In this document: positions 21,712 through 28,572 of the stretch, in pieces
How positions within the stretch are numbered: the first letter of the stretch is position 1
Layout of the letters: every line of letters starts with the position of its first letter
Assembly (NCBI RefSeq): GCF_030323025.1
Contig: NZ_CP097329.1
Coordinates: 4,264,001-4,328,000 of the forward strand
Direction: 5' to 3'
DNA length: 64,000 nucleotides
Source: Pseudanabaena mucicola str. Chao 1806
GTDB taxonomy: Bacteria > Cyanobacteriota > Cyanobacteriia > Pseudanabaenales > Pseudanabaenaceae
Made by a program: the position numbers and the translations under genes
Notes under the pieces: model-generated
Told to the model about the DNA's origin: nothing
The model's database searches: none
What the model saw: only the letters and a program-made list of their open reading frames with translations

Positions 21712-21775
21712 ATGAACTATCAAGATTTCCACTAGAACATTACGCGATCGCTATATCTATAAAAGTCAAAAGCCA

Positions 21776-22144
21776 ATGCCGAAAATACCCGACTGTGATC
21801 GCTGTCGCCACTATGCCCATAGCCATGATTTAGTCTGTGAGATCCATCCTGTAGGCATTGATGGTGAAGTATGCCCCGATCTCAAGTTGCCAGTGACCTA
21901 TGAGACTGACCATGTGCAAAGATTGACGCGATCGCAACAGTACCAAATCCTCATGACGCATCCCATGTTTACGGGTTTGTGTCCCCAATGTCGTCATGAG
22001 TACCAAGGCGATCGGTCACATTTAAGTGACTCAGCTATGCGTTCACCACAACATTTACCCCGCAAGGGGACGGAAACACTACAGTTTCCGACTCTTGGAT
22101 CTAGCGAATACTTCAGGACTGGGTATGTGGATTTCACCGAATGA
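21776..22144 (+). pseudogene. Zinc-ribbon-like protein, C-terminus replaced by foreign sequence
   Basis: The first ~80 residues (CDRCRHYAHSHDLVCEIHP, later CPQCRHEY) hold Cys pairs typical of a small zinc-binding cyanobacterial protein. After about 22022 the frame runs into a CRISPR-like repeat and transposase debris, so the expected second CxxC knuckle is missing. Probably non-functional or shortened. The role of the intact family is unknown to me. Confidence 0.55.
22041..22077. CRISPR. Solitary CRISPR-repeat-like sequence
   Basis: 37 nt beginning GTTCAC and ending GGACGGAAAC, with internal hairpin CCCCGCAAGGGG. Length, the GTT start, the central stem and the GAAAC end are standard for cyanobacterial CRISPR repeats. 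38 nt of unique, spacer-sized sequence follow (22078-22115), then a transposase fragment where a second repeat would be expected. No cas genes and no second repeat in the window. Confidence 0.5.
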
Positions 22145-22172
22145 GGGTGCAAAATTCTGGTTGTCGGTACTT
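22116..22172 (+). mobile_element. IS256 (mutator-type) transposase fragment
   Basis: 19 codons reading GLGMWISPNEGAKFWLSVL, the characteristic NEGAKFWL block of IS256-family transposases. Nothing else of the gene remains; it joins directly to the IS630 fragment. Confidence 0.6.
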
Positions 22173-22174
22173 TA

Positions 22175-22465
22175 TGGGTTGGATCAATTGTTGCTATGGA
22201 CAATTTGCCAGTACATTACGCAGAAATTGCGAAAACCTTAATTGAATCTGTTGGGGCTAAGGTCAAGTTTCTACCTCCTTATTCTCCAGACTTATCACCG
22301 ATTGAGTTATGTTGGTCAAAGTTAAAGAAAATTATTCGCTCAGCTAAAGCTCGTACAATCAAAGATCTTGATGCGGCAATTACTAAGTCTATTCAGACTA
22401 TTACTGATGAAGATGCACTTAATTTGTTCCATCATTGTGGCATCTGCTTTGAGCCTTTTAGGTAG
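22175..22465 (+). pseudogene. IS630-family transposase, C-terminal fragment
   Basis: About 96 codons: GSIVAMDNLPVHYAE, then KVKFLPPYSPDLSPIELCWS and a helical tail to a natural stop. These are the second Asp (MDN) and the final Glu (PIE) blocks of the DDE_3 domain of IS630 transposases. The N-terminal half and first catalytic Asp are lost. The joint with the IS256 fragment at about 22173 marks a deletion or recombination between two insertions. Confidence 0.85.
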
Positions 22466-22568
22466 CTTCTTTTGTGGCGGGTTTGATCAGAATTTGCTGT
22501 AAGTTAGATAATTTACAAAATTCTGATGTTAAAGTTACACATTTCGGGTTAGAATAGCAAAGCCTTAC

Positions 22569-22651
22569 GGGGGTGTGGCGGAATGGTAGACGCTACGGAC
22601 TTAAAATCCGTTGACCGCAAGGTCGTAAGGGTTCAAGTCCCTTCACCCCCA
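22569..22651 (+). tRNA. tRNA-Leu (UAA), no intron
   Basis: 83 nt, class II with a long variable arm. Acceptor GGGGGTG/CACCCCC, discriminator A, anticodon stem ACGGA/TCCGT with uninterrupted loop CTTAAAA, anticodon TAA. Many cyanobacteria carry a group I intron after the first anticodon base; here it is absent. Confidence 0.96.
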
Positions 22652-22672: not shown

Positions 22673-22694
22673 CCCTGCATCAGCAGGGCTTTTT
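22673..22694 (+). terminator. Intrinsic terminator after tRNA-Leu
   Basis: Stem CCCTGC/GCAGGG with loop ATCA, then CTTTTT, 21 nt after the tRNA end. Confidence 0.8.
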
Positions 22695-25640: not shown

Positions 25641-28409
25641 TTATGCTCTATTAAGTAGGGTTTTAAGGCGAATACTCTCTAGCTCTAAGACCTTTAGAGC
25701 TAAATTGCGATCGCGTTGCATCAGATCATCAAAGGTATCAACAGGGATCGCTAAAACCCTAGTTGGTGATGATTTAGCCGTAATTGTACCTGTCAAATTA
25801 GTATGGGTTAGCACCTCTAACTCATCTAACACTTTTCCTGATACAAGATGAGAAACCGTTTCCGATAAATCAGCACGGATAATTCTAATTTCGACATTGC
25901 CTTCAACGAGCAATAGCAGTTCGCGACATGTATCGCCTGCTTCGGTAATATGTTCGTTATCTTGGTAGGACTTTACATAGGAGCGATCGCCTAGCTCGAT
26001 CAGAATTTCATTATCAAGGGAATGGAAAAAGTCACTATTAAATAGATAGACCACCCGTTCTAATTTCTCAAAACTCGCTAAAGGTAATGAGTGAGAGCTT
26101 TTGAGGATGAGAGTGATTATGTCTTGGACTAATGGGTGTTGGTTGTCAATCTCCACTGCCGCAACCCGACTTGCCGCAAAGTCCAAAATCTGTAACAAAT
26201 ACAAGCTCACTGCTTGAATTAGGGGGTTAGGTTCTTGTAAGAGATTGGTAAGAGTCTCAACTACTTCAGAAACTGCGATCGCCATTGAGCAAGACATATT
26301 TTCTGAAGATGTCCTCAGTAAGTTAATCTGGGTAGATGGAATTTTGGATAAACAAACTGAGTTTGGCTCTTCAAGGATATCTTGCAAAACTGCGGGCGAA
26401 AGTTTACCCAAATCAATAGCAATGTCGTTGCCTTCCTCGATATTGAGGTTAGCGATCGCATCTAGTAATGCTAATACCAAAATTTTCTTTTTGCGGACGA
26501 TTGCATCTAGCAGCAAGGATACGGCAGGTCGATACTCTAGAAGGCAAGGTTGACTGAGATTATGGTAAGACTGCAATAGTTGGTCAAGGCGATTGAGATA
26601 GAAATAGCATTTCTGTTTGAGAGAAGCATCATGATCAAAACCTCGGTTAATCTCTCTTTCTTCTGCAGGAGAAATGTTATAGGTTTGGACTAGCTGCTGC
26701 GAGGCAGTGTCAGCATCTAGATTTTGGAGATAAACTAAGCGCTCAAGAGCCTTACGATAGCCTGAAATGCGTACTAAGTTTTCAAGATTACGTTGGCGAC
26801 TGGGGTCGAGTAGTTGTGGATCTTCTACACCTAACTCTTCTAAAAGAGTACGGTGTTCGGTATCGGAAATATCTAGCTCCATGCGTAGTTGCCTCAAGAG
26901 TTCTAAACTACTTGAAGAGTTAGTATAACCCTCCTCCAAGGATTCACGAAGTATACCCTTATAGGCTTCATAGCGCTTTTGCTTGGTAAATCCTGGCAGA
27001 ACTTTCGCCAAGACATAGACTTCGTGAGGATTGAGATCATCCACATCGCGATCGCTGAAGTATTGGTTAAGAGGAAAATTCATCTTCAATAGTTGCTTAC
27101 GAAATCTTCCTGCTAAGCCTTCTCTAGCGTAAAGTTCAGGATCACGCTTGAGGGCACGGGCAAGCCACAAGGTACTGAGTAATACCAGAATTACATCTAT
27201 GGTTTCTTGGAAAAAATTGGGTAGAAGGCGAATAAAGGGACGACCACCAAAGATAAAAAACAAGTTGAAAGCAAGAAAGGTAGTAATGCTAAATAAATGA
27301 TGGCGAATCTGTAAATTAGAAGTTTTTTGTTTGGCGAAGAGCAGATAGGAACGATAAAGACGTTCGCTGAGATTACCCAAAATATATCCTAATCCTGTAA
27401 ATAAGCCCAAGGTTAGCGGCACTGCTAAAATCTTGGGAATAGGAATAGCTTGATTATATAGATAAAAACCAGAGGACATTAATTTTTGAATGGAATTTCC
27501 TTCCATTGCCCAAGCGCCAGAAAAATAATAGTCCCAACTTCCAGCATAGAGATAGTAATAGAAGAAATAGCCGACTACTAATCCCAGATAGCAGTAGTAG
27601 AGAAATTGAGATTCAGGCTTCTCAATACCATCCCAGTACGATCGCTCTGAGTCAATATCAATACAGGGATTTTGGCAGGCAACACAAGCACTTTGTTCTT
27701 TCCCATCACTAGTTATTGTGCGGCACATTGATTGGGTAATCGGTACTTCGCTCATGTGAGCTTTAGTCGCCAAGAGAGCTGATGGTTCTGCATAAATCTT
27801 TTGGACAGGAGCCATTGGACAAAAGTAATTGCACCAAGTCTTACCACCATAGAGATATCCTACCGTGATCGCGGCTGCGATCGTCATAATTAACCATAAG
27901 CCTAAGGCGATCGCATTGCCATTAATAAACAAAATGCGACTACACAAACCAATAAATAGGAGTCCAAATTGGAGATATAAATAATTCTTTCCTAGCCAAG
28001 AATCCTTTTTTACTTTGGGAATTTCATAACGAACTTTCCCAGTTTTGCTATCAGTTCTTTTGACTTGTCTCTGCCAACCTAAAGCACGAGGAATTTGCGA
28101 CAGAAAAGATAATGGACAAATACGTCGCCATAGTTCATGTCCAAATACTAATAAGATAAAAATAGCGCTAGGGACAATTATTCCCCAAAATATTGGCGCA
28201 CCGAGGGGATAAGGCTGCAATTCTAAGCAAGTATTTTGCACAGATATGCAATCTTCAGGCTTAATACGAAAAGGACTCCAAGTTTGATTTGGAGTTGTAA
28301 TTAACGGAGAAATTGGATCATTAAATAGAGAAGCAATAAGAATTAACCAAGCACAGGTTAATACCCAACGGACTTTTCGGATTTGCTGCTCAGATATATT
28401 GAAAAGCAT
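25641..28409 (-). CDS. Membrane Fe-S protein (NapH/CcoG-like) with C-terminal cNMP-binding domain
   Basis: 922 residues. The N-terminal half has several membrane spans and cysteine blocks of a NapH/NosR-like polyferredoxin: RRICPLSFLSQ, TWCNYFCPMAPVQKIY and MCRTI...ACVACQNPCIDID, enough to bind two [4Fe-4S] clusters. The middle (about 500-800) is helical and without a recognised domain. The last ~120 residues (HITEAGDTCRELLLLVEG, LDELEVLTHT, TRVLAIPVDTFDDLM) form a cyclic-nucleotide-binding jelly roll. It diverges from nrtA across a 311-bp gap, so it may share nitrogen control. A redox membrane protein gated by cNMP is inference. Confidence 0.85.
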   Translation of the reverse strand: MLFNISEQQIRKVRWVLTCAWLILIASLFNDPISPLITTPNQTWSPFRIKPEDCISVQNTCLELQPYPLGAPIFWGIIVPSAIFILLVFGHELWRRICPLSFLSQIPRALGWQRQVKRTDSKTGKVRYEIPKVKKDSWLGKNYLYLQFGLLFIGLCSRILFINGNAIALGLWLIMTIAAAITVGYLYGGKTWCNYFCPMAPVQKIYAEPSALLATKAHMSEVPITQSMCRTITSDGKEQSACVACQNPCIDIDSERSYWDGIEKPESQFLYYCYLGLVVGYFFYYYLYAGSWDYYFSGAWAMEGNSIQKLMSSGFYLYNQAIPIPKILAVPLTLGLFTGLGYILGNLSERLYRSYLLFAKQKTSNLQIRHHLFSITTFLAFNLFFIFGGRPFIRLLPNFFQETIDVILVLLSTLWLARALKRDPELYAREGLAGRFRKQLLKMNFPLNQYFSDRDVDDLNPHEVYVLAKVLPGFTKQKRYEAYKGILRESLEEGYTNSSSSLELLRQLRMELDISDTEHRTLLEELGVEDPQLLDPSRQRNLENLVRISGYRKALERLVYLQNLDADTASQQLVQTYNISPAEEREINRGFDHDASLKQKCYFYLNRLDQLLQSYHNLSQPCLLEYRPAVSLLLDAIVRKKKILVLALLDAIANLNIEEGNDIAIDLGKLSPAVLQDILEEPNSVCLSKIPSTQINLLRTSSENMSCSMAIAVSEVVETLTNLLQEPNPLIQAVSLYLLQILDFAASRVAAVEIDNQHPLVQDIITLILKSSHSLPLASFEKLERVVYLFNSDFFHSLDNEILIELGDRSYVKSYQDNEHITEAGDTCRELLLLVEGNVEIRIIRADLSETVSHLVSGKVLDELEVLTHTNLTGTITAKSSPTRVLAIPVDTFDDLMQRDRNLALKVLELESIRLKTLLNRA

Positions 28410-28572
28410 GATTTTAATACGAAGTTTACTTATAACTTAATTGTAAAATTATAAAGATTGATTAGGTTTATTTATCTAATTAATCTATGGAATTTATCTC
28501 TAAAAGCAAGATTTAACAGGCACAAAAGCATAGTTTTAGCTAAATTTATACAGAGACTACATGGAGCAACCT

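What the first reader, a model, noticed from the sequence alone, without database searches (positions are those of the whole stretch)
22022..22465. Orphan CRISPR-like repeat with one spacer-sized tail at an IS256/IS630 junction
A 37-nt sequence with the hallmarks of a cyanobacterial CRISPR repeat (GTT start, CCCCGCAAGGGG stem, GGAAAC end) is followed by 38 nt of unique sequence and then, exactly where the next repeat should begin, a 57-bp IS256 transposase scrap joined to an IS630 scrap. It also replaces the end of a zinc-ribbon gene. This may be a shattered array end or a repeat moved by an IS.
Basis: partly seen in the sequence, partly recalled or inferred. Interest (0 to 1): 0.65.

Follow-up and report, generated by a model that had tools for sequence, protein, structure and literature searches.

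The report
Stranded CRISPR repeat in IS scraps
A single leftover CRISPR repeat, of the type III kind that this cyanobacterium still uses in its working arrays, sits with one spacer-sized tail between a broken gene and two transposon fragments; it is most likely a fossil of a lost array, and of ordinary interest.

Summary
Window 22041-22077 is a genuine 37-nt CRISPR repeat: its 3' 25 nt are identical to the repeats of array C in the same Pseudanabaena genome, and the whole repeat matches array C at 33/37. The genome carries three arrays with this core (8, 58 and about 77 repeats) and exactly two stranded repeats, this one and one at 594862. Arrays A and B lie beside type III-A/III-D cas genes. 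The type I-B-like systems elsewhere in the genome use unrelated repeats.

The repeat is followed by 40-42 nt of sequence unique to the species, then 52-54 bp from inside an IS256 transposase, then an IS630 tail. An intact zinc-ribbon paralogue shows the gene was cut at about 22017. A same-species MAG has the same junction, so it is not an assembly error. In that MAG arrays B and C have replaced nearly all their spacers, while both stranded repeats are unchanged.

Best reading: a one-unit relic of an old array-C-like locus, caught in illegitimate joints. I found no protospacer, leader, second repeat, promoter, guide target or mobile-element context. One feature is unexplained: the tail folds back on the crRNA 5' handle in a perfect 7-bp hairpin (0/185 real spacers, 0/2000 shuffles).

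The parts
21776..22017 (+). 5' part of a zinc-ribbon gene, truncated; the open frame runs on through the repeat to 22144 as a chimeric 122-aa ORF
   Evidence: 96% aa identity to the paralogue at G000 28267-28497; nt homology 21727-22002 at 90.6%, extended by eye to GGTC at about 22017; paralogue continues to CPMCGWEG-stop
22018..22040 (+). 23 nt of unassigned sequence; possibly the remnant of a preceding spacer; not a leader
   Evidence: Found only in this species; alignment to leaders of arrays A, B, C not better than random 23-mers
22041..22077 (+). Stranded CRISPR repeat, 37 nt, type III family, with intact CCCC-GCAA-GGGG hairpin and ACGGAAAC 3' end
   Evidence: 33/37 identical to array C, 34/37 to the second stranded repeat, differences only in positions 1-12; identical in same-species genome G058
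22078..22117 (+). Spacer-sized tail (40-42 nt), no known protospacer; nt 1-13 form a 7-bp hairpin with the repeat's 3' end (CGGAAAC-ACTACA-GTTTCCG)
   Evidence: no match elsewhere; hairpin: 0/185 real spacers, 0/2000 shuffles reach 7 bp
22118..22171 (+). Internal scrap of IS256-family (Mutator) transposase gene, 52-54 bp
   Evidence: 98% identical over 52 bp to 18 copies in the genome and 94% over 54 bp to the copy at 3319611
22172..22501 (+). 3' scrap of an IS630-type (DDE_3) element, ORF 22196-22465
   Evidence: 85% to G000 1561422-1561723 and 688224-688634; Pfam DDE_3 E 4.4e-17
22569..22651 (+). tRNA-Leu marking the start of conserved synteny with ferrochelatase (hemH)
   Evidence: Rfam tRNA 63.6 bits; conserved with hemH in G002, G021, G022 but with a different upstream gene there

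Best explanation
This is a fossil repeat-spacer unit from a former type III CRISPR array of the array-C family. A fragment carrying one repeat and about one spacer was left or inserted at a chromosomal breakpoint. On the left it is joined to a cut zinc-ribbon gene; on the right it is joined to an internal scrap of IS256, itself joined to the tail of an IS630. The joints look like illegitimate end-joining or deletion, not transposition, because no IS end survives at them. With only one repeat the unit cannot lose its spacer by repeat-repeat recombination and, lacking a leader, is not expected to gain new ones, so it stays frozen while the real arrays turn over. Shown: the repeat's identity, the cut gene, the two IS scraps, the junction in a second genome, and the spacer turnover of the arrays beside the unchanged stranded repeats. 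Inferred: that the tail was once a spacer, that the unit came from an array in this lineage, and that it has no function now.
For: Repeat family present in three arrays of the same genome. Arrays A and B flank type III-A/III-D genes with Cas1 and Cas6. Closest relatives are array C (33/37) and a second stranded repeat 486 nt past the start of the last array B repeat (34/37); the second stranded repeat and the degenerate leader-distal repeat of array C both begin ATTCACCA, and the window repeat shares TTCACCA. Tail length fits array C spacers. A paralogue proves the gene truncation. Both stranded repeats are identical in G058, while array C shares only 8 old spacers and array B none of the 9 compared. 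Relatives keep tRNA-Leu and hemH but have a different gene upstream, so this is a rearranged site.
Against: No second repeat, leader or protospacer was found to prove array origin of the tail. All four differences from array C lie in positions 1-12 and none in the structured 3' part, which is not what uniform decay predicts (though a different repeat variant as source would explain it). The 7-bp handle hairpin is odd for a former spacer.
Confidence: 0.83

Rival explanations
1. Solitary repeat unit acting as a repeat-mimic RNA (Racr-like decoy) that binds Cas6 of the type III systems, left by a former phage or plasmid.
For: The hairpin and cleavage-site region of the repeat are intact. The tail folds on the handle, which would keep the RNA from serving as a normal guide, and the RNA folds better than shuffles, z -2.4. 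Plasmids of the genus do carry this repeat family with type III-A genes.
Against: No promoter-like site upstream; the repeat lies inside a read-through reading frame of a host gene; neighbours are chromosomal, with no convincing phage genes; no phage match, and no exact 25-nt or 21-nt core in viral contigs; identity to the nearest host repeat is 89%.
Confidence: 0.06
2. Ectopic guide that regulates a host gene (CreA/creR-like), with the tail as a partial match to a promoter.
For: A single ectopic repeat with a tail conserved in two strains resembles the anatomy described in PMC9458426.
Against: No seed match better than shuffled controls near the locus or at the array A, B or C loci; own genome holds no 16-nt match with up to 2 mismatches except one that overlaps an array B repeat; the repeat belongs to the type III family, not to the two type I-B-like systems present.
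Confidence: 0.03
3. Repeat transported by IS256 or IS630.
For: An IS256 scrap adjoins the tail; an IS256 copy lies 1.9 kb upstream of array C (copy at 3319611).
Against: The scrap is internal, without an inverted repeat; the other IS256 copies examined lack a repeat next to the same bases; the junction is unique in the genome.
Confidence: 0.05
4. Homing guide of a CRISPR-associated transposon near tRNA-Leu.
For: A stranded repeat-spacer lies about 490 bp upstream of a tRNA gene; such guides are known for type V-K elements (PMC11406308).
Against: The tail has at most a 6-nt seed match around the tRNA; the repeat belongs to the type III family; no Tn7-type genes among the neighbouring proteins examined.
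Confidence: 0.01

Closest known systems
Type III CRISPR array repeats of Pseudanabaena (arrays A, B, C of this genome; plasmid pPg_04 of P. galeata CCNP1313)
   Same: Same 3' core of 20-25 nt, hairpin CCCC-GCAA-GGGG and ACGGAAAC handle
   Different: One repeat only, no leader; 5' 12 nt differ at four positions from array C
Solitary repeat units / RNA anti-CRISPRs (PMC10651486)
   Same: A lone repeat resembling the host's own repeats, with no other repeat nearby
   Different: On the host chromosome between a broken gene and IS scraps; no promoter seen; no viral or plasmid context
CreTA ectopic repeats (PMC9458426, PMC8501985)
   Same: Ectopic repeat outside arrays with a short guide-like tail
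   Different: No target promoter found, no toxin module matched, repeat belongs to the type III family and is not degenerate in its 3' half
Degenerate leader-distal repeats of CRISPR arrays
   Same: Shares TTCACCA with the terminal repeat of array C
   Different: Located about 0.96 Mb from array C, and intact in its 3' half

Membership tests
CRISPR repeat (type III family of this genus) | Sequence match to repeats of a bona fide array in the same genome | tested here: met
   33/37 to array C; 20-nt core identical to the consensus repeats of arrays A, B and C
CRISPR repeat (type III family of this genus) | Association of the repeat family with type III cas genes | tested here: met
   Arrays A and B beside Csm3/4/5, Cas10, III-D proteins, Cas6, Cas1; P. 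galeata plasmid III-A operon with the array A repeat
CRISPR array | At least two repeats separated by a spacer | tested here: not met
   Only one repeat-like site in the 64-kb window at up to 3 mismatches
CRISPR array | Leader upstream of the first repeat | tested here: not met
   Upstream 23 nt no closer to the leaders than random 23-mers (49% score as well)
Solitary repeat unit / Racr | Encoded on a virus, prophage or plasmid | tested here: not met
   Chromosomal neighbours, no convincing phage genes; no viral contig or phage hit
Solitary repeat unit / Racr | Own promoter, expressed as small RNA | tested here: inconclusive
   No sigma-70-like site upstream; expression not testable here
Solitary repeat unit / Racr | Inhibits the cognate CRISPR system | not testable with these tools
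   Needs an experiment
CreTA / regulatory ectopic repeat | Guide partly matches a promoter next to a PAM | tested here: not met
   No match above control near the locus or at the array loci, none elsewhere at 16 nt with 2 mismatches
CAST homing guide | Spacer matches the nearby tRNA attachment site; transposon genes present | tested here: not met
   At most a 6-nt seed match around tRNA-Leu; no Tn7-type proteins among the neighbours examined

The most novel reading that the evidence does not exclude
A chromosomal solitary type III repeat that is kept as a decoy RNA: Cas6 binds its intact hairpin, and the tail locks the 8-nt handle in a second hairpin so that the RNA occupies type III components without acting as a guide, tuning or blocking immunity.
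Probability: 0.04. Interest if true: 0.65.

Novelty: new member of a known kind. Interest (0 to 1): 0.22.

Why it matters
If it is a relic, it is a small clear case of a repeat-spacer unit stranded outside an array and frozen while arrays in the same genome replaced nearly all their spacers: a useful time marker, and a caution for tools that call solitary repeats functional. If it were a decoy RNA, it would extend repeat mimicry from mobile elements to the host chromosome and to type III systems.

Tried and rejected
Leader relic upstream of the repeat: by eye CTCAG-CTATGC resembles the leader end CAGAACTATAGG, but random 23-mers do as well half the time. Tail as a B-type repeat fragment (shared TTTCCGACT): found as a 2-mismatch hit overlapping array B, but the match stops after 9 nt. 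Tail as protospacer match: phages, plasmids, IMG/VR exact 20-mer, genus genomes, nothing. Self-targeting guide: scans against shuffled controls, nothing. Phage- or plasmid-borne copies: IMG/VR exact 25- and 21-mers 0 hits, phages none, plasmids only the P. galeata III-A arrays. GTDB genome scan for the TTCACCAC-type repeat: only the two stranded copies in the sister MAG, so a source array with this exact repeat was not found.

Full report
Observation. Its 20-nt core CCCCGCAAGGGGACGGAAAC occurs once in the window, with no match in 100 shuffles. In the whole genome (G000, one contig of 4.53 Mb; the window is 4264001-4328000) the core occurs 143 times at up to 2 mismatches.

Where the other copies are. 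All but two lie in three arrays: A at 568787 (8 repeats, GTTTCAAAATATTTACCCC...), B at 590054 (58 repeats, ATTTCCGACTACCTTTACCCC...) and C at 3321514 (about 77 repeats, CTTCGCCACGATATTTACCCC...). The two stranded copies are the one in the window and one at 594862, 486 nt past the start of the last repeat of array B, beyond a cytochrome c6-like gene. The window repeat is 33/37 identical to array C and 34/37 to the other stranded copy, and all differences lie in the first 12 positions. The degenerate last repeat of array C begins ATTCACCA, as the second stranded copy does.

Which system it belongs to. Arrays A and B lie beside type III-A and III-D genes, two Cas6 genes and Cas1. The array A repeat also occurs with a complete III-A operon on plasmid pPg_04 of Pseudanabaena galeata CCNP1313. 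The genome's two loci with Cas3 (at 45 kb and 3.19 Mb) score as type I-B by PADLOC and use unrelated repeats. So the stranded repeat belongs to the type III family, as far as sequence can say.

The surroundings are scraps. On the left, the zinc-ribbon ORF has an intact paralogue at 28267-28497(-), 96% identical in protein. Homology ends at about 22017, and the window copy has lost the last dozen residues including CPMC. On the right, 22118/22120-22171 is an internal stretch of an IS256 transposase gene, 98% identical to 18 copies in the genome, and 22172-22501 is the end of an IS630 element. No IS end lies at the repeat side. In three related genomes tRNA-Leu and hemH are syntenic but another gene precedes them, so this is a breakpoint relative to those relatives.

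It is not an assembly error, and it is older than most spacers. A same-species genome, G058 (its contig C142 matches JADBWH010000008.1, MAG Pseudanabaena sp. M53BS1SP1A06MG, in length and in repeat position), has the same junction, 2723 of 2737 bases identical, with the repeat and tail unchanged. It also has the second stranded copy. Between the two genomes array C shares only eight spacers, all toward the leader-distal end, and the nine leader-distal spacers of array B on the G058 contig are all different. The stranded repeats were therefore in place before most of the current spacers.

The tail. It is 40-42 nt, inside the range of array C spacers (34-45). It has no match in phages (best E 2), plasmids, IMG/VR by exact 20-mer or 26 genus genomes outside this species. 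Lack of a protospacer is common for real spacers (PMC8616872), so this does not decide. It has no guide-like match near the locus or at the array loci better than shuffled tails.

An unexplained feature. The first 13 nt of the tail pair with the last 7 nt of the repeat: CGGAAAC-ACTACA-GTTTCCG. None of 185 real repeat-spacer units in the two genomes has more than 5 such pairs, and 0 of 2000 shuffles of the tail reach 7. The 77-nt RNA folds with z -2.4. This was noticed after the fact, and real spacers may be selected against it, so the first control is biased. If the RNA exists, its handle would be masked.

Mechanism. Best supported: a fossil. A piece of an old array-C-like locus with one repeat was left at, or ligated into, a breakpoint together with IS scraps. 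Alone, it cannot recombine with a neighbour repeat, and without a leader it is not expected to gain spacers. The breakpoints and their age relative to array turnover are shown; array origin of the tail and absence of function are inferred. The rival with most interest is a repeat-mimic RNA as in PMC10651486, but the locus lacks the mobile-element context and a visible promoter. CreTA-like regulation (PMC9458426) and a transposon homing guide (PMC11406308) lack any target match.

Verdict. Observation confirmed with small corrections; interpretation partly right (relic yes, IS transport unsupported). Interest is low to moderate.

Noticed in passing
G000:C1:594862-594898 (L032:14863-14899): A second stranded repeat of the same kind, between a cytochrome c6-like gene and a Cas6 gene whose C-terminus matches a Cas6-fused HTH profile, conserved in the sister MAG.
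   Followed up: partly
window 22071-22090: Perfect 7-bp hairpin between the repeat's 3' handle and the start of the tail, longer than in any real spacer unit of the two genomes.
   Followed up: partly
L164 (NZ_CP112878.1 86880-110910): A mobilizable plasmid of P. galeata carries a type III-A operon with arrays, one of which has the same repeat as chromosomal array A of this genome, with a nearly identical leader end.
   Followed up: no
L095:4180-4540 (minus strand) and window 21727-21750: Zinc-ribbon cassette begins with TTCCACTAGAACATTACGCGATCGC; similar copies follow the intact paralogue. Related genes occur in several copies in some genus genomes, as if the cassette were dispersed.
   Followed up: no
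L162:1173-1897: The array beside the I-B-like locus at 45 kb contains a perfect internal duplication of at least 300 nt, spaced 425 nt (several units).
   Followed up: no
window 22673-22688 and G058 C157 near 1015: The loop of the terminator-like stem after tRNA-Leu is inverted between the two strains (CATCAG versus CTGATG).
   Followed up: no
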